From positions 1-27,123 of IMG/VR virus record IMGVR_UViG_3300045963_000407: a stretch of DNA of 27,123 nucleotides; one strand, given 5' to 3'. Source of the stretch: a virus. How positions within the stretch are numbered: position 1 is the first letter of the stretch; each line of letters begins with the position of its first letter. The translations under genes and the position numbers were made by a program. The notes under the pieces are model-generated. The model saw only the letters and a list, made by a program, of their open reading frames with translations. It did not search any database and had not been told where the DNA came from. Shown here piece after piece: positions 652 through 24,914 of this stretch.

Positions 652-663
652 CAAGGTGATAAC

Positions 664-1089: not shown

Positions 1090-1118
1090 TCTGTATCAAC
1101 CTGTGATGCATCGCTATG

Positions 1119-1127: not shown

Positions 1128-1178
1128 GCACACAGCAGGTTGAAGGCCCCCGGTCGCTGTACACCTGAGCGTGCGCTA

Positions 1179-1186
1179 GTAAATAC
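1179..1186 (+). promoter_or_regulatory. Candidate late promoter motif GTAAATAC
   Basis: The T4 late promoter is a single TATAAATA box. GTAAATAC here, GTAAATAC at 7326 and GTAAATAT at 24944 are the copies I found on the + strand, and all three lie in or at the edge of non-coding DNA upstream of genes. Initiation near 1191 would give the gene at 1390 a leader of about 200 bases containing the stem-loops at 1196-1211 and 1229-1319. Confidence 0.35.
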
Positions 1187-1228
1187 ATTCACGAGAGAGG
1201 CAGAGACCTCTTACAGATTGCGGGAACC

Positions 1229-1319
1229 CACCCACAACGGTAACGGCGACGTATCACCGCTAGTCTTCACGTGCAAGCATGGAGCATATCAGCGGCTGAT
1301 ACGTCTCTCTACCGGGGTG
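1229..1319 (+). ncRNA. Long bulged stem-loop; candidate Y-like RNA or structured 5' leader
   Basis: This sits in the 300-base gene-free stretch 1090-1389. Bases 1248-1261 pair with 1291-1305 over 14 base pairs, leaving one bulged C at 1296. Outside that helix, CGGTA (1238-1242) pairs with TACCG (1310-1314), and CACCC (1229-1233) pairs with GGGTG (1315-1319) across a four-base bulge ACAA. The result is a 91-base rod with a 29-base loop. A smaller hairpin (1196-1200 with 1207-1211) precedes it. Y RNAs bound by Ro60 have paired ends, a bulged helix and a large loop, and often lie near the ro gene; here the Ro-like gene ends about 580 bases upstream. It could equally be a translation-controlling leader for the gene at 1390. 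No U-rich terminator follows and no clear tRNA-like module is visible. Confidence 0.4.
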
Positions 1320-1389
1320 TGTCAGCCAAAATGTCAAAATAGCGATAAGGCCACAACAAGAGGGTCTAAGTCGCAAAAAGGAGATAAAC

Positions 1390-2091: not shown

Positions 2092-2152
2092 GCGTCATTG
2101 GGGCGGAAGTCCAATCAACTCCCGCTCGATAAACGCCAGAACCATAACCAGA

Positions 2153-2177
2153 ACAGGCTGCTCACGAGGCGGCCTGT
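2153..2177 (+). other. Intergenic hairpin ACAGGC/GCCTGT
   Basis: Six base pairs (2153-2158 with 2172-2177) around a 13-base loop, within the 108-base gap between the coiled-coil gene and the collagen-like gene. No T-run follows, so it is not a standard terminator. It could be a processing site or chance. Confidence 0.2.
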
Positions 2178-2199
2178 CTCCTGCCAGAACGGGTAACGC

Positions 2200-2694
2200 A
2201 TGCTTGATGATGCCCAACGTAGGCTTATGCAGATGAACGACCTCATCTTGAGGCATCGTTCCGGCAGGCCCCTTTCGGCCCAAACAATGGCTGAAACAGA
2301 AGCTCTGCTCCAGGAGCTGGCCCTTCTCCAGGGCATTGGTGGTTGGGGAGACGACAACATCAGCATCACTACTTCCTCAGCCCCAGGTCCACAAGGACCG
2401 CCGGGACCACCTGGACCCCCAGGCCCGGTCGGGGCCGAGGGGCCTCCCGGCCCGGCAGGACCGCCTGGTCCGCCCGGTCCTCCGGGACCACAAGGAGAAT
2501 GCTGTGGAAGATGCACCGAAGCCGAAGCGACCGAGATGGCGGCGAGCCCCTCCCCTGGTACTGAAGTGGAGACCAGCGAGCCTGTCGAGCCTGAGACGCC
2601 TCAAGAAGAAGATACTCCAGATCCTAGAGACACCCCAAACAACGCCACCCTCGTGCGTTGGTCCCGTAAGCGTACAAAGAGGAACAAACCATGA
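2200..2694 (+). CDS. Collagen-like (Gly-X-Y) repeat protein
   Basis: A 164-residue protein in three parts. Residues 1-60 are a helical, Leu-rich head ([14 protein letters not shown] onward). Residues 63-99 are an uninterrupted run of about twelve Gly-X-Y triplets ([16 protein letters not shown] onward), a collagen triple-helix sequence. The tail begins with a Cys cluster (ECCGRCTE), then an acidic Pro/Thr/Glu-rich stretch and a basic end ([12 protein letters not shown]). Collagen-like segments are common in phage fibres and head decorations and make trimers; the cysteines after the repeat could lock the trimer. The ribosome site is weak (ACGGGTAAC). The stop overlaps the next ATG by four bases (ATGA). 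Confidence 0.8.
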
Positions 2695-2876
2695 ACACCC
2701 CCACTCTGACCCCTGAGGCCGTGCTACGTCTGGCCGATGACATGGCCGGCTATGTCGCCTGCTGCGCCACCAACTTCAACTCGCACAACTACGACAGCTA
2801 CCTGCAGGCTCGAACCAACCTGGAAGATGCGATCGCCTCCTTCTTTGAGAAGATGACGCCTCTGGTGGGGTCCTAA
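2691..2876 (+). CDS. Small hypothetical protein (61 aa)
   Basis: The ATG overlaps the stop of the collagen-like gene (ATGA), with a ribosome site in AAAGAGGAACAAACC. The product is a soluble, mostly helical 61-residue protein with a CC pair (VACCATNFN) and no recognised motif. It is probably the last gene of the transcript that starts upstream of 1390, because a new promoter follows immediately. Confidence 0.65.
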
Positions 2877-2891
2877 AGAGTTACACTCTTG

Positions 2892-2922
2892 TTGTGTACA
2901 ACTGGACCCGGTGTGATACAAT
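2892..2922 (+). promoter_or_regulatory. Host-type extended -10 promoter (TTGTGT, TGATACAAT)
   Basis: TGA-TACAAT at 2914-2922 is an extended -10 element. TTGTGT at 2892-2897 lies 19 bases upstream, which is long for a -35. A GTTACA box at 2880-2885 also recurs at almost the same offset in the promoter at 4775 (37 versus 36 bases before TACAAT). Transcription would begin near 2929, giving a short leader before the ATG at 2953. Confidence 0.6.
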
Positions 2923-2952
2923 ACTTCTATCGCATCTTACCAAGGGTCCAAA

Positions 2953-3204
2953 ATGATCACCAGCACCATCTTCGTCCGCACCGTCAATGCTGACAAGGGC
3001 CGCGGCTTCGTTCTCTTGGTCGGTTACGATGCCAAGATCGTCCAGAGCAACGCCATCCAGCAGATCAGCCTGACGACCGGTACCGAAGCCGAATATGCCG
3101 CCGCCATCGCTCGGGTCAAGGCCAACTACAACGCCTCCGAGATCCGGGATGTCACCAACGACGGCATCAAGCGCAAGATGGAAAAGCAGCGGCTCGGCGC
3201 CTAA
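2953..3204 (+). CDS. Hypothetical protein (83 aa)
   Basis: First gene of a run of seven small genes behind the 2892 promoter; an AAGGG ribosome site sits eight bases before the ATG. The product begins with a beta-rich half (TSTIFVRTV, GFVLLVGYDAKIV), followed by a helical, basic C-terminus (IKRKMEKQRLG). No known domain was recognised. The position right behind an apparently host-type promoter suggests early expression. Confidence 0.7.
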   Translation: MITSTIFVRTVNADKGRGFVLLVGYDAKIVQSNAIQQISLTTGTEAEYAAAIARVKANYNASEIRDVTNDGIKRKMEKQRLGA

Positions 3205-3214
3205 GGAGCACACC

Positions 3215-3415
3215 ATGTCCTGCCAGTGCTACCACATCGGTGGTCCCTTCATCGCTGAGGACCCCGACTGCCCTGTTCATGGCCGTGAAGCCCAGCAGGA
3301 AGCCGTGAAGCGTGATAGGGTCATCAAGGACCTGGATGCCGCCCTCGACAGCGAGGAGCCTGAGCGCATCGAGGCCGAGGCCCGTAACGCCCTCTACTAC
3401 CTTCGCAGTCTCTAG
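3215..3415 (+). CDS. Small protein with N-terminal Cys/His metal-binding knuckle (66 aa)
   Basis: The ATG at 3215 follows AAGGAG with good spacing. The N-terminus carries CQCYH and DCPVHG, a CxC...CxxH arrangement seen in many short phage proteins and likely to bind zinc. The rest is a charged helix (QEAVKRDRVIKDLDAALDSE onward). It begins 11 bases after the previous stop and ends 10 bases before the next start, so it is one unit of the operon. Function unknown; nucleic-acid or host-protein binding is possible. Confidence 0.7.
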   Translation: MSCQCYHIGGPFIAEDPDCPVHGREAQQEAVKRDRVIKDLDAALDSEEPERIEAEARNALYYLRSL

Positions 3416-3424
3416 GAGCCCCGC

Positions 3425-3640
3425 ATGAAGACCCGTGGATTTACCCTCATCGAACTCTTGGTTGTCCTGGTGGCCATCGCCATCGCCACCACGATCTTCT
3501 ATCAGCTGGGCTACGGTCACAGCACCGAACATGCCCGAGCCGGCCACTTCGAGTGCAAGGGCGGCTTCACCTTCAAGGTGGAGGAGAACGGCGACGCCCG
3601 GCCTGCCACCAACACCGAGGTCGCTCAAGCGAAGTGCTGA
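3425..3640 (+). CDS. Pilin-like membrane microprotein with class III prepilin signal (71 aa)
   Basis: The ATG follows AGGAG. The N-terminus MKTRGFTLIELLVVLVAIAI is a complete type IV prepilin signal: short basic leader, Gly5/Phe6 cleavage site, Glu at +5 of the mature protein (Glu10), then about 20 hydrophobic residues. In bacteria, PilD-type peptidases cut and methylate such proteins, which then enter pili or type II secretion pseudopili. The soluble part is only about 40 residues (FECKGGFTFKVEENG then RPAT then EVAQAKC), far shorter than a real pilin. The same C-terminal unit recurs in the next gene. Two cysteines (44 and 71) could form a periplasmic disulfide. A plausible role is interference with host pili or secretion, but this is inference. 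Confidence 0.8.
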   Translation: MKTRGFTLIELLVVLVAIAIATTIFYQLGYGHSTEHARAGHFECKGGFTFKVEENGDARPATNTEVAQAKC

Positions 3641-5844: not shown

Positions 5845-6152
5845 GCTCAGATGCTCAATGGGCCCAGCGCCCCTTCTCAGTGGTGGTGTTGATCGACAGC
5901 CAAAAGTACTGGACCACCGAGGAGCCGACGATGCTGACGCCCGAGGCCGCTCAGGGGCTACTGGATAGGACGCGCGGCATGATCGATGAGAAGGTCATGC
6001 TGTACCAGATCGGTGGCTACAAGGTGCCGGGGCTCTCGCTCTACCGCCGGTGGCCGCAGGCCCAATACATCGATGCGCAGGCCATTATCTCGGCACATGC
6101 TCTTTCACGTAACGTCGTCACCGTTGCCTTGGTACCGGAGCAGGTCAAGTGA
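5841..6152 (+). CDS. Hypothetical protein (103 aa), GTG start
   Basis: The start is assigned to GTG at 5841, forming a GTGA overlap with the upstream stop. The same arrangement recurs at 6149, 6727 and 9491, which supports the choice over upstream in-frame ATGs that lie entirely inside the previous gene. The protein appears beta/alpha (FSVVVLIDSQKYW, a helix over EAAQGLLDRTRGMIDEKVM, then LYQIGGYKVPGLSLYRRW, and a C-terminal NVVTVALVPEQ strand). No family is recognised. Confidence 0.6.
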   Translation: MSSDAQWAQRPFSVVVLIDSQKYWTTEEPTMLTPEAAQGLLDRTRGMIDEKVMLYQIGGYKVPGLSLYRRWPQAQYIDAQAIISAHALSRNVVTVALVPEQVK

Positions 6153-6730
6153 TCAACCTCATCATAGCCGTCGATCAAGGCAACGCCATCGGTTGGTCTG
6201 ACGGCCGTCTTGCCTACCCAGGTCTCAAGCAGGACATGGCCCGCTTCAAGGAGCTAACTACCAACTCAACGGTGGTTATGGGTCGCAGCACCTACCTCTC
6301 GCTTGGTCGTCCTGCCGGCCTGCCCAACCGCCGCAACATCGTCCTTACCCGCAAGCCCTACAGTGAGGTGCGTGGCACCATTTCCAGCGAGGTCGAGATT
6401 ATTTCCAGCCTGGACTGGGTGGCCCAACATGCCGCCGCCTCCAAGCTCACCACCTCCATCATTGGCCGCCAGACAGGTGACATCTGGATCATCGGTGGCG
6501 CCAGCGTCTACGACGAGGCCCTGAAGAAGGGTATCGTTGACGAGATCTACCTGACGCTGGTTCACGCCGTCAGCGAGGCCGATGTGCGGATGGAGACGGA
6601 CCTGGCCTCCTGGCGCCACTTCATCATCACCGAGAAGAAGCAAGGTCGCATCTGGGCCGGCATCCCCACCTCTCGCCAGTGGGACGGTGAGGTCGAGACT
6701 TCCTACGTCAACCTCATCAAGCACCCGTGA
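6149..6730 (+). CDS. folA: Dihydrofolate reductase
   Basis: A 193-residue enzyme that reduces dihydrofolate to tetrahydrofolate with NADPH, supporting phage thymidylate and purine synthesis. The landmarks of the family are in order: INLIIAVDQGNAIGW (Met20-loop region), PGLKQDMARFKELT with the active-site acid as Asp, VVMGRSTYLSLGRP (NADPH-binding GRxTxxSxGRP), RNIVLTR and IWIIGGASVYDEAL (GGxxxY). It is somewhat longer than the roughly 160 residues of E. coli FolA, with extra sequence around residues 70-110. It starts with GTG overlapping the previous stop (GTGA) and ends with the same arrangement. No thymidylate synthase gene is in the window. Confidence 0.93.
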   Translation: MINLIIAVDQGNAIGWSDGRLAYPGLKQDMARFKELTTNSTVVMGRSTYLSLGRPAGLPNRRNIVLTRKPYSEVRGTISSEVEIISSLDWVAQHAAASKLTTSIIGRQTGDIWIIGGASVYDEALKKGIVDEIYLTLVHAVSEADVRMETDLASWRHFIITEKKQGRIWAGIPTSRQWDGEVETSYVNLIKHP

Positions 6731-6870
6731 AGATACTTCCACTGCTGCTGTCGGTCTCCTTCGGCACCTACCTTTCCATGCAGTTCGAGGACCCCGTCCT
6801 TTCGATGGTCTTCTGTGCCGTCGTCGGCCTGCTGACCGGCTTCCTCTTCTACACATCACCACGCAAATGA
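6727..6870 (+). CDS. Membrane microprotein (47 aa), GTG start
   Basis: This short frame fills the gap between folA and the bactofilin gene. Its GTG overlaps the folA stop (GTGA), and its TGA overlaps the next ATG (ATGA). The peptide has two hydrophobic segments (ILPLLLSVSFGTYLSM and MVFCAVVGLLTGFLFY) separated by a short acidic turn (FEDP), so a two-helix hairpin in the inner membrane is likely. The coupling on both sides supports real translation. It might anchor or regulate the neighbouring bactofilin, but that is inference. Confidence 0.6.
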   Translation: MKILPLLLSVSFGTYLSMQFEDPVLSMVFCAVVGLLTGFLFYTSPRK

Positions 6871-7271
6871 AGCTCTTCAAGTCCAAAGGCTTTGACACCA
6901 TCATCGGTGCCAACCTCGTTGTCAACGGCGATGTCATCCTGCACGGCACGACCGTCGTTGACGGCTTCATCGACGGCTGCATGGTCCACAAGGACCCCAA
7001 CGCCGCAGCCGAGAGCACGACGATCCTCATCGTCAACAAGAAGGCTACCGTCAGGGTTACCCATGATGTCACCACGGATGTCCTGGAGGTCGCTGGTGAC
7101 CTCATTGCCGGCACGGTGGATGCCCATACCCTCGTCGTCAAGGACGGTGGCAGCATCACCGCTGCAGAGATCGCATACGGTACCCTTCGGGTAGAAGGTG
7201 CGGGCAAGGTGGAAGGCAGCCTCAGGCAGCGTGACACGCCTCAGACCAAGGCCGCCGGAGGCCCATTGTAA
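6867..7271 (+). CDS. Bactofilin-like polymer-forming protein
   Basis: A 134-residue protein with the ATG at 6867 coupled to the preceding stop. After a short basic head (MKLFKSKGF) comes the bactofilin pattern of short beta rungs: DTIIGANLVVNGDVILHG, TTVVDGFIDGCMV, TTDVLEVAGDLIAG, then VDAHTLVVKDGGSI, AAEIAYGTLRVE and KVEGSL. Bactofilins (PF04519) fold as a right-handed beta-helix and polymerise end to end, without nucleotide, into filaments at the bacterial membrane. An insertion-like stretch (about residues 44-70) interrupts the rungs. The C-terminus (RQRDTPQTKAAGG) is disordered, as is usual. A phage copy might organise a membrane or intracellular site. It is the last gene of its operon. 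Confidence 0.75.
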   Translation: MKLFKSKGFDTIIGANLVVNGDVILHGTTVVDGFIDGCMVHKDPNAAAESTTILIVNKKATVRVTHDVTTDVLEVAGDLIAGTVDAHTLVVKDGGSITAAEIAYGTLRVEGAGKVEGSLRQRDTPQTKAAGGPL

Positions 7272-7305
7272 CCTACAACATCTCACAACTTCTCTCACCG
7301 GGTAG

Positions 7306-7333
7306 TAGAATGACTATCTGGCAGCGTAAATAC
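7306..7333 (+). promoter_or_regulatory. Tandem promoter motifs before prkA (TAGAAT and GTAAATAC)
   Basis: The 97-base gap before prkA contains a -10-like TAGAAT (7306-7311), with no convincing -35, and a late-type GTAAATAC (7326-7333). The latter would initiate near 7339, about 30 bases before the ATG. The same two-motif order occurs upstream of the gene at 1390. A ribosome site AAGGAAG lies at 7355-7361. Confidence 0.35.
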
Positions 7334-7368: not shown

Positions 7369-9327
7369 ATGAACGCCCTCTCCGCACTTTCGGCCACTTT
7401 CGCCAGTCGCTTTGCACAACCGGAGATCATGTCTCTGGAAGACTACCTGCAGCGCTGCAAGGCCGACCCGCTGGCCTACGCTACTGCCGCCGAGCGCATG
7501 GTCGCCGCCATTGGTCAGCCCATCGTCATCGACACCAGCGAAGATGCCCGACTGTCACGCATCCACTCCAACAAGAAGATCCGGGTCTACCCGTCCTTCA
7601 GCGACTTCTTTGGTGCTGAAGATGCCGTCGAGCGCATCGCCGCCTACTTCCGCAACAGCGCCGCGGGTCTCGAAGAGAGCAAGCAGATCCTGTACCTCAA
7701 GGGCCCCGTCGGTGGTGGCAAGTCCTCCCTGGCAGAGCGCCTGAAGGCGCTGATGCAGAATGCCGCCATCTATGTCCTCTACGACGACAGCGAGAAGGAC
7801 CCCGAGCGCAAGATGTCGCCGGTGTTGGACAGTCCGCTGGGCCTCTTCAACGCCTTTGAGCACGCCGACCTGCTCGAGACGACCTACGGCATCCCCCGCC
7901 GCTACCTCAGCACCGTCATGTCTGGCTGGGCCCAGCAGAAGCTGCAGGAGTTCGGCGGCGACATCACCAAGTTCAAGGTCATCAAGGTCTTCCCGAACAA
8001 GGACAGCCAGCTCGGCATCATGAAGGTTGAGCCGGGCGACGAGAACAACCAGGACGTCTCGGTGCTCATCGGCAAGACCGACATCCGCAAGCTCGAGAAG
8101 TTCCCGCAGAACCACCCGTACTCGTACAGCTACAGCGGCGGCCTGAACCGCACCAACCAGGGCCTGATGGACTTTGCCGAGATGTTCAAGGCCAACATCA
8201 AGACGCTGAACCCGCTGCTGATGGCCACCCAGGAACACAACTACCAGGGCACCGAAGCCATCCCCGCCATGCCGTACACCGGCATCATCATGGCCCACTC
8301 CAACGAGAGCGAGTGGTTCAACTTCCGCAACAACAAGACCAACGAGGCCTTCCTGGACCGGGTCTACATCGTCGATGTGCCGTATTGCCTGCGCACCGAT
8401 GAAGAGATCCGCATCTACGAGAAGATGCTGGGCGGCTCCAGCCTGTCGACGGCGCCGTGCGCCCCTGGCACCCTGAAGATGCTGGCGCAGTGGTCGATCC
8501 TGACCCGCCTGAAGAAGCCCGACAACAGCACGATCTATGCCAAGCTGCGGGTCTACAACGGCGACAATGTCAAGGACACGATGCCCAACGCCAAGCCGTT
8601 CGAGGAGTACAAGGCCCTGGCCGGCAACGACGAAGGCATGAAGGGCATGTCCACCCGCTTCGCCTTCAAGGTCCTCTCGGCCACCTTCGACCTTCGCCCT
8701 GAAGAGCGTCAGGCCAACCCGATCGACCTGATGTATGTCATCGAGGAGGCCGTCCGCAAGGAGAACCTGCCGAAGGAGATGACGGACGAGTACCTGGCCT
8801 TCATCAAGGACCACCTGCAGCCGAAGTACTTCGAGTTCCTGGAGAAGGAGCTGCGCACGGCGTACCTCGAGAGCTACAGCTCGTTCGGCCAGAACATGTT
8901 CGACCGCTACGTCCTCTTCGCTGCCAGCTGGATCGACGACGAGCAGTGTCGTGACCCTGAGACCCACACCCTGCTGGACCGTGACAACCTCAATCGCAAG
9001 CTCGAGGAGATCGAGAAGGCGGCCGGCATCACCAATGCCAAGGACTTCCGGAACGAGATCGTCCACTATGTCCTGCGCCACAAGGCCAAGCACGAGGGCA
9101 AGTCGCCCCGTTGGGACCAGTACGAGAAGATGAAGACGGTCATCGAGAAGCGCATGTTCTCGGCCACCGAGCAGATCATGCCGGTCATCGCCTTCGGCCC
9201 GAAGCAGGACAAGGACACGGAAGAGAAGCACCGTGGCTTCGTCGAGCGCATGGTCGCCAAGGGCTACACGGAAGCCCAGATCAAGATCCTCGTCAGCTGG
9301 TTCACCTCGAACCGTAAGAGCAGCTGA
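7369..9327 (+). CDS. prkA: PrkA-family serine protein kinase (YeaG-like), full length
   Basis: A 652-residue protein close in length to bacterial PrkA/YeaG (about 640). It has the PrkA N-terminal AAA domain: IRVYPSFSDFFGAEDAVERI, then the Walker A GPVGGGKS at residues 112-119, with DSPLGLF, a GLNRTNQGLMDFAEMFK block, and the MPYTGIIMAHSNESEW, FLDRV and PYCLR motifs typical of the family. The C-terminal kinase-like region follows. In E. coli, yeaG lies next to yeaH, and together with ycgB (SpoVR) these respond to nitrogen starvation and stationary phase; here all three are within 5.6 kb on one strand. The gene is complete with no frameshift, and its codon use is strongly GC-biased. It probably acts in the cytoplasm on host or phage targets. 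Confidence 0.95.
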   Translation: MNALSALSATFASRFAQPEIMSLEDYLQRCKADPLAYATAAERMVAAIGQPIVIDTSEDARLSRIHSNKKIRVYPSFSDFFGAEDAVERIAAYFRNSAAGLEESKQILYLKGPVGGGKSSLAERLKALMQNAAIYVLYDDSEKDPERKMSPVLDSPLGLFNAFEHADLLETTYGIPRRYLSTVMSGWAQQKLQEFGGDITKFKVIKVFPNKDSQLGIMKVEPGDENNQDVSVLIGKTDIRKLEKFPQNHPYSYSYSGGLNRTNQGLMDFAEMFKANIKTLNPLLMATQEHNYQGTEAIPAMPYTGIIMAHSNESEWFNFRNNKTNEAFLDRVYIVDVPYCLRTDEEIRIYEKMLGGSSLSTAPCAPGTLKMLAQWSILTRLKKPDNSTIYAKLRVYNGDNVKDTMPNAKPFEEYKALAGNDEGMKGMSTRFAFKVLSATFDLRPEERQANPIDLMYVIEEAVRKENLPKEMTDEYLAFIKDHLQPKYFEFLEKELRTAYLESYSSFGQNMFDRYVLFAASWIDDEQCRDPETHTLLDRDNLNRKLEEIEKAAGITNAKDFRNEIVHYVLRHKAKHEGKSPRWDQYEKMKTVIEKRMFSATEQIMPVIAFGPKQDKDTEEKHRGFVERMVAKGYTEAQIKILVSWFTSNRKSS

Positions 9328-9329
9328 TC

Positions 9330-9494
9330 ATGACGGCAGGCCTTCTAGCAGCGGCGGCCTTCCTCCTGGTTATCGTGTCGGTGCTGTTTCAAACCGGCCC
9401 GTTCCACTCAACCGGGAAGATGACTGCGACGCTCATCTGTGCTGTATTTGCAGTCTTCTTCCTGCTCTACTCGGTCAAGGTCTACACTCCGTGA
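9330..9494 (+). CDS. Two-helix membrane microprotein (54 aa)
   Basis: This frame starts two bases after the prkA stop (ATG at 9330) and ends in a GTGA overlap with the next gene. The peptide has two strong hydrophobic segments, LLAAAAFLLVIVSVLF and ATLICAVFAVFFLLYSV, joined by a short polar loop (QTGPFHSTGKM). A helical hairpin in the inner membrane is predicted. Its placement inside the prkA-yeaH-spoVR operon suggests a role in tethering or regulating the module. Nothing in the sequence identifies a family. Confidence 0.65.
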   Translation: MTAGLLAAAAFLLVIVSVLFQTGPFHSTGKMTATLICAVFAVFFLLYSVKVYTP

Positions 9495-10045
9495 AGCTTC
9501 GCGATCTCATACTTTGTAATAGCCACAACGATGGGACCAGATCTCTCTTTGAGAGTATCCTTGTTCCTGAAGTTGAGGCAGCTTTCAAAGATTGGAATCG
9601 CGCAGCCCCAAACGCAAGATGCGTCCTGATAGGCGGTATCGCGCTGTCGTTCTATGTCAAGCCGCGAATGACCACCGACGCTGACCAGCTCTTTCTGTCG
9701 GCAGCCGACATTCCCACCGCTGCAGATGGTTTCAAGCGCACGAGACCGGGTGCGTTTATCCACAAAAAGACGCATGTTGAGATTGAGGTCCTGGTTCCAT
9801 CAGCAATCAACATGACCGTAGAGCTTGCTCAAGTCATATTTGATCGTGCGCAGATTCATGATGAAATCCGTGTGGCAGAGCCCAGCGGCATCGTGGCCGC
9901 AAAACTTGGACGCTTCAAGCTTCGTGACCAGGCTGACATAGAAGAACTGTTAGAGCATTTCAAGATTGACCTTGACCCTTATCCTCTGTCAGCAACCGAG
10001 CTTGCACGCTACGAGCAGCTTCGTCTACAACTGAGTAACCCATGA
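9491..10045 (+). CDS. Nucleotidyltransferase-fold protein (AbiEii/DUF6036-like)
   Basis: The 184-residue product starts at GTG 9491, overlapping the upstream stop; in-frame ATGs further upstream lie inside prkA. It has a minimal nucleotidyltransferase signature: CVLIGGIALSFY (Gly48-Gly49), PRMTTDAD (Asp63, Asp65) and a third acidic strand HVEIEVLV, where Glu replaces the usual Asp. A downstream helix (GIVAAKLGRF then RDQADIEELL) matches the AKL.A...R...D..DI pattern of AbiEii-like and DUF6036 proteins. Relatives act in toxin-antitoxin or abortive-infection systems. The gene looks more AT-rich and uses rarer codons than prkA and yeaH, suggesting later acquisition. It overlaps yeaH by four bases. 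Confidence 0.75.
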   Translation: MKLRDLILCNSHNDGTRSLFESILVPEVEAAFKDWNRAAPNARCVLIGGIALSFYVKPRMTTDADQLFLSAADIPTAADGFKRTRPGAFIHKKTHVEIEVLVPSAINMTVELAQVIFDRAQIHDEIRVAEPSGIVAAKLGRFKLRDQADIEELLEHFKIDLDPYPLSATELARYEQLRLQLSNP

Positions 10046-11427
10046 CGACAAAGCCACCAGTCTCAGCGACCTTCATCTTCGTCGATCGGCGCAAGACCGC
10101 CCGAGGCAAGTCCCTCGGCAACCGCAGCAAGCTCCTTGACCGCATCAAGGAGAGCATCCGCCAATCCAAGCCTGAGGACATAGATGCCGGCGGTGTAAAG
10201 GCGGCAACCGGCGGGGCAGCCGGCGCCAAGACCTTCACCAATCCTGTGAAGATCGCCCGCAATGCCCTACACGAGCCGACCTACCACTACGACCCCAACA
10301 GCGGCGAGCGCGATATCGTGTTGGTGGGTAACGACACCTGGGAGCGCGGTGACGAGTTCCCGGTCAGCAGTGAGGGTGGCGGTAAGGGCGGTAAGGGTAA
10401 AGGCAAGGGTGAAGGCAACGGCCCCGGTGAGGATGGTGAGGATGACTTCATCATCAACATCTCCCGTGATGAGTTCTACAACGTCTTCTTCGAGGACTGC
10501 GAGCTGCCCGATCTGCAGGAGACCTCCGAGAAGGAGCTGCCCGAAGCCGTCATGAAGCCGGCCGGCTACCAGCGTGAAGGTAGCGCCGCTCAGCTCTCAG
10601 TCGTTCGCTCGTACCGCAACTCCATCGGCCGCCGCCACGCCTTGACCGCGGATTCAAGGTCTGAGCTGGAAGAGCTGGAAGAGGAGCTGGCGCTGCTCGA
10701 TGAGCGGCTGGCAGGCAATCCCCTTGATAGTGCTGCCAACACCCGTTGGGTGGTAGTTGCTGCCCGTATCGAGGAGCTGAAGGCCAAGATTGCTGCCACG
10801 CCCTTCTTTGAGCGGTTGGACCTACGCTACCGCAAGAGTGAGCGAGTGCAGGTAAAGTCGGCCGACGCTGTCCTCTTCATGCTGATGGACATCAGCGGCT
10901 CGATGGACGAGGACAAGAAGCGGGCCGCCCGCAAGTTCTTCTCGCTGCAGTACGCCTTCATCGCCAAGAAGTACCCGAACACCGACCTCGTCTTCATCCC
11001 CCATACCGACAGCGCCGAAGAGGTCGACGAGGAGGAGTTCTTTACGACTCGCAAGAGTGGTGGCACCGTCGTCTCTCCCGCCTTTGCTCTGGCCCACCAG
11101 ATCATCAAGGCCCGCTACGACACCAACCAGACCAATATCTACCTCTCCTATGCCGGTGACGGTGACAACTGGGACTCCGACAATCCCGAGGTCATCTCCG
11201 AGCTGGAGGAGAAGGGACTGCTGGGCAAGCTGAGGCATGCCGTCTATGTCCAGGTCGGTCACACCGCCGGTGGTGGCTTCTCCTACGGTACCAGCGTCTC
11301 GCTGTGGAACATAATGCAGTCGATCGCCAAGGGCAACCCGAAGCTGCACACCGTCAAGATCGCCGACGACAGCGCTGTCTTCAGTGCCTTCCGGTCAATC
11401 TACTCAAAGGCCAAGGTCAAGGCATGA
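10042..11427 (+). CDS. yeaH: DUF444/YeaH-like VWA-domain protein
   Basis: A 461-residue protein; bacterial YeaH is about 430. The opening FIFVDRRKTARGKSLGNRSKLL is the family's conserved start. It is followed by EPTYHYDPNSGERDIVLVGN, a Gly/Lys low-complexity loop (about residues 111-130), INISRDEFYNVFFEDCELPDL, and a C-terminal VWA domain with MIDAS D283-ISGSM, KSGGTVVSPA and a YAGDGDNWDSDN block. Bacterial YeaH is encoded directly beside PrkA and is thought to be its partner, though its biochemistry is not settled. An extra helical stretch with a Glu-rich run (ELEELEEELALLDERL) is visible. The start overlaps the upstream gene (ATGA), as does the stop with the next frame. Confidence 0.93.
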   Translation: MTTKPPVSATFIFVDRRKTARGKSLGNRSKLLDRIKESIRQSKPEDIDAGGVKAATGGAAGAKTFTNPVKIARNALHEPTYHYDPNSGERDIVLVGNDTWERGDEFPVSSEGGGKGGKGKGKGEGNGPGEDGEDDFIINISRDEFYNVFFEDCELPDLQETSEKELPEAVMKPAGYQREGSAAQLSVVRSYRNSIGRRHALTADSRSELEELEEELALLDERLAGNPLDSAANTRWVVVAARIEELKAKIAATPFFERLDLRYRKSERVQVKSADAVLFMLMDISGSMDEDKKRAARKFFSLQYAFIAKKYPNTDLVFIPHTDSAEEVDEEEFFTTRKSGGTVVSPAFALAHQIIKARYDTNQTNIYLSYAGDGDNWDSDNPEVISELEEKGLLGKLRHAVYVQVGHTAGGGFSYGTSVSLWNIMQSIAKGNPKLHTVKIADDSAVFSAFRSIYSKAKVKA

Positions 11428-11543
11428 ACATCACCAAAGAAACAGGTGCCGTTATCGGTGTATCAGTCATGCTCTTGGCGGGCATGGCGTGTCTTGGCGC
11501 GGTAATCGCCTTCCTCTGCTACATCCCGGAGTTCTTCAAATGA
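11424..11543 (+). CDS. Single-helix membrane microprotein (39 aa)
   Basis: The ATG at 11424 overlaps the yeaH stop (ATGA), and the TGA overlaps the spoVR ATG at 11540 (ATGA). The peptide has one hydrophobic helix (AVIGVSVMLLAGMACLGAVI onward, ending AFLCY) between a short polar head (MNITKETG) and tail (IPEFFK). Perfect coupling on both sides argues for translation. It is the second membrane peptide inserted between members of the prkA-yeaH-spoVR set. Confidence 0.6.
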   Translation: MNITKETGAVIGVSVMLLAGMACLGAVIAFLCYIPEFFK

Positions 11544-13006
11544 GCGACCTGTACATCACCTCTCGCACCGACTGGACCCCTGCCCTCATCGAGCAGGCCT
11601 ACCGTGAAATCGAGAAGATCGCCCACGAGGAGCTGGAGCTGGAAGGGCTGCTCTATCCGAACCAGATCGAGATCATCGGTTCCGAGCAGATGCTGGATGC
11701 CTACGCCTCCATCGGCATGCCGGTGCACTACAGTCACTGGTCCTACGGCAAGGAGTTCCTGAAGAACGAGAAGGCCTATAACGGCGGCCGCATGGGCCTG
11801 GCCTACGAGATCGTCATCAACAGCGACCCATGCATCTCCTACCTCATGGAGGAGAACAGCATGCTGGCGCAGACGATGGTCATCGCCCACGCAGCCATTG
11901 GCCACAACGCCGTCTTCAAGAACAACGAGACCTTCAAGCAGTGGACCAACGCTGGCTCGATCATCGACTACATGATCTTTGCCCGCGACTACATTCGCAC
12001 CTGCGAGCACCGCTACGGCCCGCAGGAGGTGGAAGCCGTCCTCGACGCGGCACACGCCCTGGCACCGCATGGCGTCGACAAGTTCAAGCGAAAGCACAAG
12101 CCTCGCATGACCGAAGAGACCCGTCTGAAGAAGCTTCTTGAGCAGGAAGAGCGCCGGCAGCGCGAGCTCGACATCATCATGAAGAAGACGAGCATGATGC
12201 CAGCAGCCGACTTCATCGAAGAAGACGAGCACATGGAAGAAGAAGAGAACCTGCTCTACTTCATCATGAAGAAGTCGCCGGCGCTGGAACCGTGGAAGCG
12301 GGAGATTATCCGCATCGTCTACAAGATCAACCAGTACTTCTACCCGCAGTCGCAGACACAGTACCTCAACGAGGGCTACGCCTCCTTCTGCCACTACTAT
12401 ATCATGACACGGCTGGAAGAGAAGGGCATCCTCTCTCCCGACGCCTACATGGCGTTCCTCGATCACCATGCCGGCGTCATCTACCAACCGACCTATGGTT
12501 CGCGCCACTACAGCGGCTTCAACCCGTACGCCATCGGCTTCGCCATCCTGATGGATGTCAAGCGCATCTGCGAGGCACCGACCGATGAGGATCGCGAGTG
12601 GTTCCCCCAGCTCATCGGGCGCAAGTGGCAGGATGCCGTCAAGGAAGCTGCCTTCGAGCACCGCGATGACAGCTTCATCCAGCAGTACCTCTCCCCGAAG
12701 GTCATGCGCGACCTGCGCCTCTTCAGTATCAAGATGGAAGTTGACGACGGTGATGCCTCAGCCATCGTCTCTGAGATCCATGATGAGATCGGCTACAAGA
12801 ACATCCGCGTCGCCTTGGCTCGGAGCAGAGAGCGCATTAACTTCGTGCCGCAGATCCGCGTTGTTGGTGCCGACCTTGAAGGCGACCGCATCTTGAAACT
12901 GAAGTACGAATCCTTCATGGGTCGTGAGATCGAGGTCGAGGACGCCAACTCTGTCACTGATATGGTTGACTTCCTTTGGGGACATCCAGTCGAACTTGAT
13001 TGCTGA
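11540..13006 (+). CDS. spoVR: SpoVR/YcgB-family protein
   Basis: A 488-residue protein, slightly shorter than E. coli YcgB (510). It has the SpoVR N-terminal layout: DWTPALIEQAYREIEKIA, LDAYASIGMPVHYSHWSYGK, YEIVINSDPCISYLMEEN, and the His-rich stretch HAAIGHNAVFKNNETF. Next comes QTQYLNEGYASFCHYYIM, YSGFNPYAIGFAILMDVKR, and a C-terminal beta-rich region. Members co-occur with PrkA and YeaH in bacteria; the B. subtilis namesake affects spore cortex, and the biochemical activity is not known. The ATG at 11540 is coupled to the 39-aa frame. A mid-protein charged helical insert (about residues 186-232, EEDEHMEEEEN) is present. Confidence 0.93.
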   Translation: MSDLYITSRTDWTPALIEQAYREIEKIAHEELELEGLLYPNQIEIIGSEQMLDAYASIGMPVHYSHWSYGKEFLKNEKAYNGGRMGLAYEIVINSDPCISYLMEENSMLAQTMVIAHAAIGHNAVFKNNETFKQWTNAGSIIDYMIFARDYIRTCEHRYGPQEVEAVLDAAHALAPHGVDKFKRKHKPRMTEETRLKKLLEQEERRQRELDIIMKKTSMMPAADFIEEDEHMEEEENLLYFIMKKSPALEPWKREIIRIVYKINQYFYPQSQTQYLNEGYASFCHYYIMTRLEEKGILSPDAYMAFLDHHAGVIYQPTYGSRHYSGFNPYAIGFAILMDVKRICEAPTDEDREWFPQLIGRKWQDAVKEAAFEHRDDSFIQQYLSPKVMRDLRLFSIKMEVDDGDASAIVSEIHDEIGYKNIRVALARSRERINFVPQIRVVGADLEGDRILKLKYESFMGREIEVEDANSVTDMVDFLWGHPVELDC

Positions 13007-13012
13007 GCCGCT

Positions 13013-13318
13013 ATGACACTACCATCAGTTGAACACCTCTTCTGGCTCCGTCACGATCCAGAGCGCTTTGAGTGGGCGCGCAACGCACTCATCAGTGACT
13101 ACATCAAGAGCCTGCCAGAAGATCGCAGACACGCCGCCTATGCCATGCAGTGCAAGATCGACGTAGCCCGGATGAAGCTGAGCCCAGAAGAGTTCCTGGT
13201 CTGGATGCAGCGAGAGGCTGTTGAGCTGGGCGACAACCTGGCTGACCAGTTCTCCTTCATCAAGCACAAGATCGAAGATCTCAATGCCAGCGTGAAAGAG
13301 CTTGGATCAGGCGGATGA
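13013..13318 (+). CDS. Small helical protein, possibly DUF3135-like (101 aa)
   Basis: Six bases after spoVR and last in the operon. The sequence LPSVEHLFWLRHDPERFEWARNAL, with DYIKSLPEDRRHAAYAMQCKID and MKLSPEEFLVWM, resembles the compact helical pattern of DUF3135 proteins, in which a (L/M)Q.(K/R)ID motif follows an 'R.....L' helix. The match is from memory and tentative. The function is unknown. Its last 38 bases overlap the 3' end of the convergent desaturase gene. Confidence 0.6.
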   Translation: MTLPSVEHLFWLRHDPERFEWARNALISDYIKSLPEDRRHAAYAMQCKIDVARMKLSPEEFLVWMQREAVELGDNLADQFSFIKHKIEDLNASVKELGSGG

Positions 13319-14024
13319 AGAGGTAGCCGCCGTCGAAGGATCCAAAGCGTGGATCCTTGGGACGATCGTGATGATGTCCGTGAAACCACTCGCCGCCGGT
13401 GAACATCAGCAGCTCCATCAGCGGTAGATCTCGAGGTCCCTTCTTACCATGCGCAAAGACATGGTGAAAGGAGCTTGCCAGGTGCAGCCAACCGACCGGT
13501 ATTAGGTACCCAAAGATCAGCGCCATTGGCGATATCAGCCAGAAGAGCAGCGCCGTTGCAAGCACGACCAGCGTGTAGTATCGATGCATAAATCTATGCA
13601 GCGGGTCACGATAAAGACGTATCAGAACACGTCGATCAAAGATCGTTGGGTTGTTTCTCTTCCACAGCAGGTACCACAAACCTGAGTAGTGTGGGTCTTT
13701 CTCGGTGTCGTAGTAGCGATGGTGTGAGGCATGCATCGCCGCCCATTGCACCGTTGATCCATAGACACCGATCGTGCCAAGATAGGCAAGAATAAGGTGC
13801 CAATATCTTGGCACCCTGAAGGCGCGATGGCAGAAGAGGCGATGCATGCCAACAGTGACACCCATCAACACCAAGAACGAGTTTACGGCGGCTAGTACCA
13901 ACCACCAAGCGCTGATGGCGCCGACGCTGATGGAGTAACCCGCATATGCCATTGCCACCAAGCCGACATACGACATGATCGGTGTTAGCACCAGTTGGTG
14001 GGTGAAAATGCGCGAGAGCTTCAT
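13281..14024 (-). CDS. Membrane fatty-acid (acyl-CoA/acyl-lipid) desaturase
   Basis: A 247-residue integral membrane di-iron enzyme of the stearoyl-CoA/delta-9 desaturase family. The three histidine boxes are intact: H61RLFCH66 (HX4H), H98ASHH102 (HXXHH) and H215GHHH219 (HXXHH, in GEWFHGHHHD). An extra His181 lies in GWLHLASSFHHV, where family members carry a fourth ligand region. Four hydrophobic segments (about 12-30, 40-60, 75-93 and 152-185) fit the family. Such enzymes insert a cis double bond into acyl chains using O2 and electrons from a host donor. The ATG overlaps the upstream stop (ATGA), so it is translated with a gene series that starts at a tail adhesin. At under 250 residues it is a compact version. 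A likely effect is to change host membrane fluidity. Confidence 0.9.
   Translation of the reverse strand: MKLSRIFTHQLVLTPIMSYVGLVAMAYAGYSISVGAISAWWLVLAAVNSFLVLMGVTVGMHRLFCHRAFRVPRYWHLILAYLGTIGVYGSTVQWAAMHASHHRYYDTEKDPHYSGLWYLLWKRNNPTIFDRRVLIRLYRDPLHRFMHRYYTLVVLATALLFWLISPMALIFGYLIPVGWLHLASSFHHVFAHGKKGPRDLPLMELLMFTGGEWFHGHHHDRPKDPRFGSFDGGYLFIRLIQALSRWH
13336..13358. terminator. Perfect 9-bp hairpin at the convergent gene junction
   Basis: AAGGATCCA (13336-13344), loop AAGCG, TGGATCCTT (13350-13358). It starts 17 bases after the + strand operon stops and lies inside the 3' coding end of the convergent desaturase. There is no T-run on either strand, so any termination would be weak or Rho-assisted. 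It could also stabilise mRNA 3' ends. Confidence 0.3.
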
Positions 14025-17377: not shown

Positions 17378-20300
17378 TTATTTGCCTTCCAGCGCTTCCA
17401 GACGAGCCATCAGCACCTTGTTCTGGGCAGAGAGTTCCTTGACGGCTTCGATGAGCAGACCGACCATGTTGCCATAGGCGACCGTCTTCATACCTTCTGT
17501 GTTGGTGCTGACGACTTCTGGCAGAACCTCCTCAACCTCTTGAGCGATGACACCGGCGTGACGCTTCTTGGTATCCTCGGTGTCGGTGCGGGTAAAGGTG
17601 ACACCACGGATGGCTTCCACCTTTGCCAGCGCATCAGGGATGGTCTCGACGTTGTCCTTGATGCGTGCATCAGAGAAGGCGGTAACGTCACCTCGGAAGG
17701 TAACAGCACCTGCAGTGGTCAGCTCCATCCGGTAGGTGTTGAGACCATCAGACCATCCGCCGATACGGAAGACGTTGTCTGTATCCATGCCCATGTTAAT
17801 GGCATAGACGCCTGAACGGTGGAAGCCCATCACGGCGCTACCGGTGCCGGCGCTGTTGTAGACGTTCAGGTAGCCGCTGTTGGCGTTGTTGCCAACGGTG
17901 CCGAAGGAGTTGAGGTACTGAATGCCTGACCAGGTGTAAGAACCACCGACGGCGCTGGAGATGCTGGAAGCATTACCTGCCGTCAGGGAGCCGGCGGTGC
18001 CGGTAAGACCAGAGCCCGAGCCGCTGAAGGTGGTAGCGCTGAGGGTACCGGTGCTGGACTGGATGGTAACTGCATTGCAAGAGAAGTTTGCAGACGTACC
18101 ACCCGTGGTGTTCCAGACAACCGGATATGCCGTGGTGTCGGTGCGAGCAGCATTCGACGTGACGGTTGCGGCATTACCCGTGATGCTGCCAGTCAGGGTA
18201 CCAGTGAAGTTGCCATTGACCTGACCAGTACCAAAGTTGAAGTTGGTACCGTCAAAGTAGAGATACGCTGACGTGTTGTCACCAAAGTACACCGTACCAG
18301 TGGATGCTGAACGACGGGTGATGAGGTCACCGGCTTGACCCGAGCCTGATGCTGCCTGGTTGAAGGAAGCAACGATCCTATCACGAGAAATGATCTGACC
18401 GTCAGCACGTACCTGGAAGTTGGTGACGGCGTTGGTAGTGCCCTGGAAGTACCAGTTGCTGGAGCCGGTTGGGTTGTCGATCTTGGCAAGGTAAGCGCCG
18501 GTGCCGTCAGCGTATGATGCACCGATCTTGTAGGCGGTGATCATCGAGCCACCGGCGGTGGTGCCAACGGTGATCTGCGATGTCGTCGATGTGCCACGAC
18601 CGGTAACGGTGGCAAACGTCTCGCTTGCTGCCAGACCGGTAATGCTGATAGATGCCGTGCCAGTCAGCGCCGTCGTCAATGCCGCAACCGATGCCTTACG
18701 TAGGTAGTTGTCACTGCCGTTGGTGACCATTACCTGGCTGATAGTCGGGTTCTCGCTGTTGCTAGATGACTGGTTGAAGTACCGAGCAAAGATGTCACCG
18801 TTGCTATCGCGAACTGCGGCGGTGCTTGCCGTGTTTGCCTGGCTTGGAACAAAGCCACCCACCTGAGCTGCCGAGCCCGAGATGCTGATGCCCCAGGTAC
18901 CCGAAGCGCCGGTGCCGCTCAGCGTCGGAGCATACGAGTTGTAGTTGCTGGAGTGCAGGATGTTGCTGAAGGAGCCCCAGGTGGTGTCGATACCTGCCCG
19001 GATCTGCAGCGTCGGCGCAGCGGTGCTGTTGGCAGCCGCCGGCGAGAAGAGCAGCTGGTAGGACGGGTCACCGGTAGATGCCGTCGTGCCAAGCCAGTTG
19101 GCGTAGGTGATGAGACCGGAGTAGGAACCTGCGGTACCAAACAGCGAGGCGCTCTTGAACTCACTGAAGAGACCATACGAGTAGGTATTTGGTGCCAGGC
19201 TGACCGTGCGCGAGCCTGAAGAACCACGAGGATCTACTGGCGTCAGGTATGTGGTAGCATCTGTCTGACGCAGCACGTTTGCGGACGACGCCGCAGTTGC
19301 ACTGCCAGCACTACCCGTGATGTTCATCGTGTAGGTGCCACCGTTGACCGTGCTGTTAGGCAGCGTGCCGCTGGTGATGTTGCTGGCGTTCAGGCTGGTC
19401 AGTGCAGCGCCGCTGCCGCTATGCGTGCCGCTGATGGTTCCTGTAGAGGTGATGCTACCGACCGAGGTGATGGCACCGGAGATGGACATCGAACCTGTGA
19501 AGGCGTGAGCACCTGCAACGTAGTTGAGGGAGCCGGTATCGGTCGTGCCGGTAGTTGAAGAGTTGCCAATGTAGCCCTGGCGGTTGCCGTTGCCAGCGTA
19601 GAACTCAAAGTAGCCTGCGTTAGTGGAGGTACCGTTATGAGCGGTCACGTAGCCGGTGCTGGCAGTCGTCGACTTGACAAACAAGGTGCCCGTGATGTTG
19701 GTTGAACCATCGCTGGCAATGGTCAATGCATTGCGGAAGACGCTGTTGTCAGACGATGCCTGGTAGAACTCGTAGGTACCTGGTGTCGTTGTCGCCGAGC
19801 CAAAGGAGAGCATACGAGCGGTGCCAGAGACGTAGCTGTCCATCTTGAAGGCAGGACCGGTTGCCGAAGCAATCGATGAAGGACCCGGAATGGAGATGCC
19901 ACCGGCAACGTTGAGCTTCTCGGTCGTGGTTGCAGTGTTGATGCCAATGTTACCAGCGGTGCTGATAGTCATCGCATTGGTACCGCCTGCGGTACCAGCC
20001 GAGAAGTTGTAGTTGCTGGCAGTTACCTGCAGCGGCTGATAGGCAACCAGCGTGTCGTTGTAGGCATTGATAAAGGCGGAGGTCGAGTTGACATAGAAGT
20101 CAGCACGGTAGCCAACACCCGCCTGCGCCTGCGTCCGGATGCCATTGAGTACGTTCAGCTGTAGCGTGTTGGTGGTGGTGCCAATCAGGACCTTGCCAGA
20201 GCTGTCGATACGCATGCGCTCCGTTGCACTGGTAATGAACCTCATCGGCACAGCTGCCGTCGTGTACACGAATGAACCCGTAGTGTCCGCGCCGATTTGG

Positions 20301-24906: not shown

Positions 24907-24914
24907 TATTTATG
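24907..24914 (-). promoter_or_regulatory. Candidate late promoter for the giant fibre (CATAAATA)
   Basis: Read on the - strand, CATAAATA differs from the T4 late consensus TATAAATA at one position. It lies 39 bases upstream of the fibre ATG, leaving room for a short leader with the AGGAG ribosome site. Another TAAATA motif points the opposite way 29 bases further along, at 24943. Confidence 0.45.

What the first reader, a model, noticed from the sequence alone, without database searches (positions are those of the whole stretch)
7369..13318. Complete PrkA-YeaH-SpoVR stress module in a phage, remodelled with extra genes
All three partners of the bacterial prkA/yeaH/ycgB set are full-length, with their key motifs (GPVGGGKS, DISGSM, SpoVR His-rich blocks) and on one strand. 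They are separated by two membrane microproteins and a nucleotidyltransferase-fold gene, nearly all coupled by stop/start overlaps. In bacteria the trio is linked to starvation responses, so the phage may impose or mimic a host stress state. The added genes suggest a membrane-anchored version not described for bacteria.
Basis: partly seen in the sequence, partly recalled or inferred. Interest (0 to 1): 0.85.

Follow-up and report, generated by a model that had tools for sequence, protein, structure and literature searches.

The report
Bacterial starvation-brake operon in jumbo phages
A family of giant bacteria-infecting viruses carries a complete copy of a three-gene bacterial machine (PrkA, YeaH, SpoVR) linked to shutting down starving cells; the extra genes wedged into this copy look like unshared cargo, but the core machine is well preserved and appears to be switched on together with virus-particle genes.

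Summary
In detail: this 27 kb virus record carries full-length PrkA, YeaH and SpoVR genes on one strand, motifs intact, mostly joined by 4-nt stop/start overlaps. It is one case of a widespread arrangement. Of 28 related IMG/VR contigs (eight of 183-368 kb), 27 carry the trio in this order and the 28th ends inside YeaH. Mahaphages and Thermus phages have it too. The jumbo-phage copies form one clade in all three trees.

The "remodelling" reading fails. The nucleotidyltransferase-like gene and first microprotein recur in only one distinct sister contig; the second microprotein in none. The PrkA-YeaH gap is an insertion hotspot: short in 14 of 29 contigs, otherwise filled with unrelated cargo. 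What is conserved is a bactofilin gene just upstream of PrkA (23 of 28 relatives), and a T4-late-like TAAATA element before PrkA (10 of 21), also found before fibre genes but never before SpoVR. The SpoVR model resembles gluzincin peptidases but lacks their catalytic glutamate.

Best reading: a captured bacterial AAA+/vWA/zincin "metabolic brake", expressed late. Identity is near certain, late expression likely, function inferred. The trio in phages is already visible in deposited annotations (phiYS40; in part RsoM2USA), but I found no paper treating it as a phage module.

The parts
6867..7271 (+). bactofilin (polymer-forming cytoskeletal protein), directly upstream of PrkA
   Evidence: PF04519 E 2e-8, 34.8 bits against cut-off 27.9, scanned as 6876-7271; ATG at 6867; same place in 23 of 28 related contigs
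7327..7332 (+). TAAATA element, 42 nt before the PrkA start; T4-late-promoter-like
7369..9327 (+). PrkA/YeaG: AAA+ domain plus kinase-like C-terminal domain
   Evidence: PF08298, PF06798; NF011999 980.7 bits against cut-off 576; Walker A GPVGGGKS; K434 = E. coli YeaG K426
9330..9494 (+). m1, 54-aa hydrophobic microprotein
   Evidence: hydropathy only; 48% identical frame in sister contig L021, dN/dS about 0.6
9491..10045 (+). NT, possible AbiEii/DUF6036-type nucleotidyltransferase (weak)
   Evidence: sub-cut-off Pfam matches; 88% identical in L021, dN/dS about 0.05; third-position G+C 0.52 against 0.79-0.90 in the trio
10042..11427 (+). YeaH/YhbH (DUF444), vWA domain with MIDAS DISGSM at residue 283
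   Evidence: PF04285; MIDAS residues
11424..11543 (+). m2, 39-aa hydrophobic frame, not seen in other phages
11540..13006 (+). SpoVR/YcgB, gluzincin-like fold, HAAIGH (117-122) and LNEG (E278)
   Evidence: PF04293, PF24755; model and structural comparison; conservation
13013..13318 (+). small protein with DUF3135 match, last gene of the run
   Evidence: PF11333 E 9.3e-9; found by BLAST near SpoVR in part of the relatives
6149..6730 (+). dihydrofolate reductase, part of the shared upstream block
   Evidence: PF00186 E 6e-29; DHFR match in 26 of 28 related loci
24907..24912 (-). TAAATA element 44 nt before the giant fibre gene (17378-24868, - strand); comparison site for the PrkA element

Best explanation
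The locus is a phage-held copy of the bacterial PrkA-YeaH-SpoVR module, kept by a clade of T4-type jumbo phages. PrkA (AAA+ ATPase with a kinase-like C-terminal domain), YeaH (vWA/MIDAS protein) and SpoVR (gluzincin-like, catalytic Glu replaced by Ala) are expected to act as one machine: the ATPase and the vWA protein remodel or gate SpoVR and its targets. PrkA opens a transcription unit with a late-type TAAATA promoter that reads through YeaH and SpoVR. Produced late, the module would do what YeaG/YeaH do in starved E. coli, namely quiet host metabolism, and so hold a long-infected cell intact and economical while particles are assembled. NT, m1 and m2 are cargo in an insertion hotspot, not needed for the core. 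Shown here: gene identity, order, conservation, clade, intact motifs, purifying selection between two contigs. Likely: late co-transcription. Inferred: complex formation, the brake function and its benefit.
For: Families. Same order in 27 of 28 contigs, the 28th cut. Jumbo copies form one clade, SH-aLRT 100, in the PrkA (22 rows), YeaH (21) and SpoVR (22) trees. PrkA keeps the lysine equivalent to E. coli K426 in the window and 21 of 21 jumbo copies tested; the K426A mutant loses the YeaG-dependent lag (PMC10954441 passages). MIDAS and SpoVR site residues kept. dN/dS about 0.18, 0.18 and 0.21 against the sister contig. TAAATA before PrkA in 10 of 21 contigs against 0.6 expected, in fibre rows 11 of 22, YeaH 2 of 24, SpoVR 0 of 23, DHFR 0 of 20, bactofilin 0 of 8; best of the 15 arrangements of the same letters. 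gp23-type capsid gene in 6 of 9 long contigs. E. coli YeaG and YeaH are called a metabolic brake. RsoM2USA, whose table lists PrkA and SpoVR, has a 270-min latent period, said to be the longest then known for a jumbo phage; its relative XacN1 (90 min) is held and gave no PrkA match.
Against: No expression, interaction or phenotype data for any phage copy. TAAATA is absent before PrkA in 11 of 21 contigs, one of the 10 hits lies at -6, and none was seen in the 120 nt before gp23 in the 4 loci where the gp23 frame was picked (the other 2 were not tested). That T4 late promoters read TATAAATA is recalled. The only sigma-70-like site found (7282-7311) also precedes PrkA but is no more than chance (1 found, 1.7 expected). 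PrkA's kinase activity is disputed: none was detected for the B. anthracis protein (PMC13001217 passages). The latent-period contrast is one pair, and the RsoM2USA authors suggest the lack of a phage RNA polymerase as a cause. In Lalka8 the trio lies between a minor-head and a terminase gene, which fits a morphogenesis role as well.
Confidence: 0.42

Rival explanations
1. The trio is a late morphogenesis or envelope machine: AAA+/vWA remodelling with a zincin-like partner helps build or process virion parts or the cell envelope for release, with no role in host quiescence.
For: Late-type TAAATA shared with fibre genes; in Lalka8 the trio sits between minor-head and TerL genes and in phiYS40 two genes before the terminase large subunit; SpoVR is annotated as a spore-cortex protein; bactofilin upstream in 23 of 28 relatives.
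Against: The bacterial homologues are linked to starvation in the E. coli papers seen; in the mahaphage records and in MN1 no structural gene beside the trio was identified here; the core residues match the bacterial form.
Confidence: 0.25
2. NT and m1 are a self-contained moron (toxin-antitoxin or superinfection exclusion pair, AbiEii-like) that landed in the operon and borrows its transcription.
For: Shared only with one distinct sister contig; NT third-position G+C 0.52 against 0.79-0.90; NT under strong purifying selection, dN/dS about 0.05; the site is an insertion hotspot.
Against: Nucleotidyltransferase matches are below cut-off; no PADLOC match; no relatives in plasmids, phages or 398 Pseudomonadota genomes, so nothing is known of the family. 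This explains the inserts, not the trio.
Confidence: 0.15
3. The bactofilin, PrkA, YeaH and SpoVR form a scaffolded, membrane-associated complex, so the first reader's membrane-anchored version is right but for another gene.
For: Bactofilin 18-614 nt upstream of PrkA in 23 of 28 relatives; two bactofilin frames directly upstream of prkA in a Bacillus licheniformis record.
Against: 0 of 80 proteobacterial prkA loci have one; four contigs with sequence upstream lack it; the TAAATA element lies between bactofilin and PrkA, and bactofilin overlaps DHFR in some relatives, so it is probably in the preceding unit.
Confidence: 0.12
4. Passive hitch-hiking: recent host DNA with no function in the phage.
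For: Host gene sets are sometimes picked up; Enterobacter phage LAU1 has yeaG/yeaH at the very end of its record, probably flanking host DNA.
Against: One ancient phage clade in all three trees, low dN/dS, same order in 27 of 28 contigs.
Confidence: 0.02

Closest known systems
Bacterial prkA(yeaG)-yeaH-spoVR(ycgB) operon of Pseudomonadota
   Same: All three families, order and strand; 67 of 80 proteobacterial loci show YeaH then SpoVR downstream of PrkA; 4-nt YeaH/SpoVR overlap in 29 of those 67 and in 8 of 28 phage relatives; PrkA 57-61% identical to the best 80
   Different: Bacterial PrkA-YeaH gaps are 0-192 nt against 714 nt here; phage copies form their own clade; bactofilin upstream; TAAATA element
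RsoM2USA, Ralstonia jumbo phage (PMC8504454, Table 2 seen in part)
   Same: PrkA (ORF30) and SpoVR (ORF28) on one strand, 1,355 nt apart, room for one YeaH-sized ORF29; TROVE and DHFR genes elsewhere in the genome
   Different: ORF29 is not named in the part read; sequence not held here, so gene order and clade were not tested
Thermus phages phiYS40, TMA, phiLo, MN1, Lalka
   Same: YeaH-like, SpoVR and PrkA genes side by side in the four looked at; annotated 'SpoVR' and 'serine kinase' in phiYS40
   Different: Order YeaH-SpoVR-PrkA; about 25% identity; group with the Bacillus/Thermomicrobium side of the PrkA tree; phiYS40 and phiLo lack the K426 lysine
Mahaphages LR745206, LR756502, LR756504 and huge phage LR756511
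   Same: All three genes; same order in LR745206, LR756504 and LR756511
   Different: Separate clade (LR756511 far off); in LR756502 SpoVR lies about 243 kb from PrkA-YeaH
Gluzincin metallopeptidases (LTA4H, M1, M32, ACE, oligoendopeptidase F)
   Same: Fold of the SpoVR model: best Z 12.7; 49 of the 50 rows shown are such peptidases or ACE2; NEG motif
   Different: No HExxH: HAAIGH here, H[V/A]xxH in Thermus phages, Thermomicrobium and LR756511

Membership tests
PrkA/YeaG | AAA_PrkA plus PrkA C-terminal domain | tested here: met
   PF08298 514.9 and PF06798 200.3 bits, cut-offs 25; NF011999 980.7 against 576
PrkA/YeaG | Walker A and the lysine equivalent to E. coli K426 | tested here: met
   GPVGGGKS; K434
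PrkA/YeaG | protein kinase or ATPase activity | not testable with these tools
   activity is disputed even for bacterial PrkA
YeaH/YhbH (DUF444) | PF04285 over cut-off and vWA MIDAS motif | tested here: met
   380.3 bits against 27; DISGSM, SGGT and GD aligned with E. coli
YeaH, NCBIfam equivalog groups PRK05325 | score over the curated cut-off | tested here: not met
   best 382.3 against 396; so filed under the Pfam family only
SpoVR/YcgB | PF04293 and PF24755 over cut-off | tested here: met
   469.6 against 27, 40.9 against 27.6 bits
SpoVR, NCBIfam equivalog NF008737 | score over the curated cut-off | tested here: not met
   630.6 against 679; Pfam family only
PrkA-YeaH-SpoVR operon | three genes, one strand, this order | tested here: met
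PrkA-YeaH-SpoVR operon | one transcript, proteins in one complex | not testable with these tools
   indirect only: overlaps, and TAAATA before PrkA but not before SpoVR
Bactofilin | PF04519 over cut-off | tested here: met
   34.8 against 27.9 bits
AbiEii/DUF6036 nucleotidyltransferase (NT gene) | Pfam score over cut-off | tested here: not met
   17.1 against 22.5 and 18.6 against 23.6
AbiEii/DUF6036 nucleotidyltransferase (NT gene) | nucleotidyltransferase fold | tested here: inconclusive
   model pLDDT 36.9
Gluzincin peptidase (SpoVR) | gluzincin fold | tested here: inconclusive
   VIA-align Z 12.7 to 7.4, 49 of 50 rows gluzincin-type, but Foldseek itself gave nothing at E <= 0.001; model pLDDT 78 with weak stretches 56-74, 82-87
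Gluzincin peptidase (SpoVR) | HExxH with catalytic Glu | tested here: not met
   HAAIGH in the window, Ala or Val at the Glu place in the rows aligned; not filed as a peptidase
T4-type late promoter | TATAAATA core (recalled) and late sigma factor | tested here: inconclusive
   TAAATA enriched before PrkA and fibre genes; late sigma factor not searched; none before gp23 in 4 loci

The most novel reading that the evidence does not exclude
Jumbo phages hold a late-expressed quiescence machine: a PrkA/YeaH ATPase-vWA engine that drives a non-peptidase zincin (SpoVR), perhaps on a bactofilin scaffold, and keeps the host alive but idle through an unusually long latent period. It would be a phage counterpart of starvation dormancy, used to lengthen infection rather than to take over the cell.
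Probability: 0.15. Interest if true: 0.75.

Novelty: new member of a known kind. Interest (0 to 1): 0.5.

Why it matters
PrkA-YeaH-SpoVR is widespread in bacteria, yet no biochemical role for the trio is settled. A phage clade that keeps the whole set with its active-site residues, apparently under a late promoter, shows the trio is portable and useful on its own, gives a small genetic system in which to test it (Thermus phages grow in laboratory strains), and raises the question of phages that slow their host instead of driving it. The SpoVR fold reading, if right, gives the first concrete site to mutate. The finding also warns that neighbouring frames in a phage operon should not be read as parts of a machine before relatives are checked.

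Tried and rejected
Rejected: (a) interleaved genes as conserved parts of the module. (b) A phiYS40 bactofilin near its trio: the weak PF04519 match (E 6.4e-4) lies in YS40_052, annotated as an LpxD-like acyltransferase, so probably a shared beta-helix. (c) Defence system: no PADLOC match for PrkA, NT, YeaH or SpoVR. (d) RNA elements: no Rfam match in the window, L030, L014 or L053 at gathering score, nor in L030:11900-17500 at E <= 0.1, so the split YeaH of 3300033555_000001 is unexplained. (e) NT relatives: none in plasmids, phages (E <= 0.01), PDB sequences, 3 named genomes or 398 Pseudomonadota genomes; the tool warns that an empty answer without a positive control shows little. (f) NT structure: unusable model. 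(g) PDB sequence search: PrkA finds 9xip/9xiq/9xir 'Serine protein kinase' (E 7.6e-49); YeaH and SpoVR find nothing credible. (h) Foldseek for SpoVR: nothing at E <= 0.001; the gluzincin reading comes only from the second look. (i) gp23 as a control for the late promoter: no TAAATA in 4 loci; in 2 more the script picked another frame. (j) Exact TATAAATAC in nine long contigs: 22 sites in 7 of 9, about as many as the reversed control, so the full T4 consensus is not enriched genome-wide; only the TAAATA position relative to starts is informative. (k) Paper searches: SpoVR+PrkA+phage 5 papers, YeaH+YeaG+YcgB 3 (22), SpoVR+jumbo phage 1 (27), SpoVR+YeaH 0 (28), SpoVR+virus+AMG 2 (29), YeaG+nitrogen starvation 30, 20 listed (34), SpoVR+YcgB 3 (35), PrkA/AAA/SpoVR/von Willebrand 29, 20 listed (76), bactofilin+prkA 0 (85), SpoVR/metallopeptidase/zincin 3,237, 20 listed (101). 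None of the listed titles treats the trio as a phage module; subscription journals are missing.

Limits: the related loci were each fetched with one of the three genes, so only the presence of the other two is informative. Trees used 21 of the 28 contigs and 40 of the 80 bacterial loci plus outliers, quick method, SH-aLRT only. The transmembrane calls are hydropathy only; the 66-67 aa frames (2161, 45973 contigs) are borderline. Endonuclease-like labels rest on sub-cut-off Pfam matches or sequence likeness.
Full report
What is there. The window is a whole 27,123-base virus record. Between 7369 and 13318 it holds PrkA, m1, NT, YeaH, m2, SpoVR and a small DUF3135 gene, all on the + strand. Four of the six junctions are 4-nt stop/start overlaps; the other two are gaps of 2 and 6 nt. 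PrkA has GPVGGGKS and scores far over the NCBI PrkA equivalog cut-off; YeaH and SpoVR are over their Pfam cut-offs but slightly under the NCBI equivalog ones.

How widespread. Scans of IMG/VR with SpoVR, PrkA and YeaH gave 28 other contigs, one nearly identical to the window. In 27 of 28 PrkA, YeaH and SpoVR follow in that order on one strand; the 28th ends inside YeaH. In one of the 27 (3300033555_000001) YeaH is split into two frames. Eight contigs are 183-368 kb long. A TROVE/Ro60 match lies in 21 of 28 loci and DHFR in 26 of 28, so the trio sits in a shared block. Six of nine long contigs carry a T4-type gp23 capsid gene. In the phage collection, PrkA finds 16 records: 11 Thermus, 4 uncultured huge phages, 1 Enterobacter phage with yeaG/yeaH at its record end. 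SpoVR finds 6 records and YeaH 16.

Ancestry. The jumbo copies form one clade with SH-aLRT 100 in PrkA (22 rows), YeaH (21) and SpoVR (22) trees. Mahaphage copies form another (99, 84, 80). Thermus-phage copies are far away, near the Bacillus/Thermomicrobium side for PrkA; for YeaH their grouping needs two changes, and long branches make these placements unsure. So phages acquired the trio at least twice; whether jumbo phages and mahaphages share one event is open. Among 80 proteobacterial loci, 67 have YeaH then SpoVR downstream of PrkA; the rest lack one of the two in the stretch held. PrkA-YeaH gaps there are 0-192 nt, and 29 of the 67 have the same 4-nt YeaH/SpoVR overlap.

The inserts. 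PrkA-YeaH gaps are at most 114 nt in 14 of 29 contigs (window included) and 161-1,691 nt in 15. Six of the 15 hold homing-endonuclease-like frames (weak GIY-YIG or HNH matches, or likeness to such frames); nine hold a small hydrophobic frame of one of several kinds, three of them borderline contigs. NT occurs only in the window, its near-copy and one distinct sister. NT is a real gene (dN/dS about 0.05) but its third-position G+C (0.52) stands out from the trio (0.79-0.90). m1 is weakly supported (dN/dS about 0.6), m2 not at all. This is an insertion hotspot, not a designed remodelling.

The bactofilin. A bactofilin gene (6867-7271) lies directly upstream of PrkA and in the same place in 23 of 28 relatives by a profile made here; with Pfam's own model 17 of the 28 match at E <= 0.01. 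One of the five others is cut there. A Bacillus licheniformis record has two bactofilin frames directly upstream of prkA; none of the 80 proteobacterial loci does. It is the conserved neighbour, though probably in the preceding transcription unit.

Promoter. TAAATA occurs before PrkA in 10 of 21 contigs within 130 nt (0.6 expected from its density; nine lie at -34 to -59, one at -6). Per gene row, within 80 nt: fibre 11 of 22, PrkA 10 of 22, o25852 4 of 8, o14560 3 of 4, YeaH 2 of 24, SpoVR 0 of 23, DHFR 0 of 20, Ro60 0 of 15, HD 0 of 14, bactofilin 0 of 8 (rows include one contig held twice). Of the 15 arrangements of these letters TAAATA is the most frequent, 10 of 21 against at most 4. In the window it occurs four times, once 42 nt before PrkA and once 44 nt before the giant fibre gene. 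I read this as a T4-late-type promoter (consensus recalled) that starts the PrkA unit. Against it: none before gp23 in 4 loci, the exact TATAAATAC is not enriched genome-wide over its control, and the one sigma-70-like site found also precedes PrkA but is not above chance.

Function. In E. coli, YeaG and YeaH are needed for survival of long nitrogen starvation, mutants regrow faster, and the authors call them a metabolic brake; the YeaG K426A mutant loses the effect (passages of PMC10954441 and PMC4664914). YeaG phosphorylates AceA in vitro (abstract of PMC8055822), whereas no kinase activity was found for the B. anthracis PrkA (passages of PMC13001217). The K426 lysine is kept in the window, 21 of 21 jumbo copies, 40 of 40 bacteria and 3 of 3 mahaphages, not in phiYS40, phiLo, LR756511 or Bacillus. 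The YeaH MIDAS is intact.

SpoVR. An AlphaFold model from 34 sequences (pLDDT 78.3) gave no Foldseek match at E <= 0.001. The structural second look gave Z 12.7 for a putative lipoprotein and then, in the other 49 rows shown, gluzincin-type enzymes or ACE2: LTA4H and other aminopeptidases, carboxypeptidases, ACE, oligoendopeptidase F. H117, H122 and E278 match the metal-site pattern: H117 and H122 are kept in every aligned row but one gapped row, and so is E278; the place of the catalytic Glu is Ala or Val. Thermus-phage, Thermomicrobium and LR756511 copies have the classical four-residue spacing. A mahaphage SpoVR has an intein-like insert just inside the LNEG motif. I infer a metal site without ordinary peptidase chemistry.

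Mechanism and rivals. Most likely an AAA+ engine with a vWA adaptor acts on SpoVR and its targets, late in infection, to quiet the host. A morphogenesis role is the main rival (Lalka8 context). Support from biology is thin: RsoM2USA, whose table lists PrkA and SpoVR, has a 270-min latent period, XacN1 without a PrkA match has 90 min, one pair only, and the authors offer another cause.

Novelty. phiYS40's record already names SpoVR and a serine kinase beside a conserved protein; RsoM2USA's table lists PrkA and SpoVR (section 19, part 1 read); spoVR is reported among viral genes in a marine oxygen minimum zone (passages of PMC8940887). None of the papers listed by ten searches treats the trio as a phage module. 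I file it as a new member of a known kind.

Noticed in passing
L014 (LR756504) 9950-11857: Mahaphage SpoVR carries an in-frame insert of well over 100 residues right after NEGC of the zinc-ligand motif, starting with Cys and ending HNC: a mini-intein-like element (PF14890 E 0.0095, below cut-off).
   Followed up: partly
L030 / L053 (3300033555_000001): YeaH is split in two frames about 650 bp apart and flanked by about 1.7 kb on each side, one side with a 530-aa DUF7487 frame; no Rfam intron match.
   Followed up: partly
window 1-651: C-terminal part of a Ro60/TROVE protein (PF25045 E 2.2e-52); 339 phage records in the collection hold a relative.
   Followed up: no
window 3425-3640: Small protein with a type IV pilin N-methylation motif (PF07963 E 3.2e-7), odd in a phage.
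   Followed up: no
window 13281-14024 (-): Fatty-acid-desaturase-like protein (PF00487 29.6 bits, just under the 29.7 cut-off) beside the fibre genes; found near SpoVR in several relatives.
   Followed up: no
MN688132 (L057) 1-3308: Enterobacter phage LAU1 record begins with yeaG/yeaH, probably host DNA at a prophage end.
   Followed up: no
L021 14005-14604: A 199-aa frame, acetyltransferase-like by eye but without a Pfam match, sits between YeaH and SpoVR in the sister contig.
   Followed up: partly
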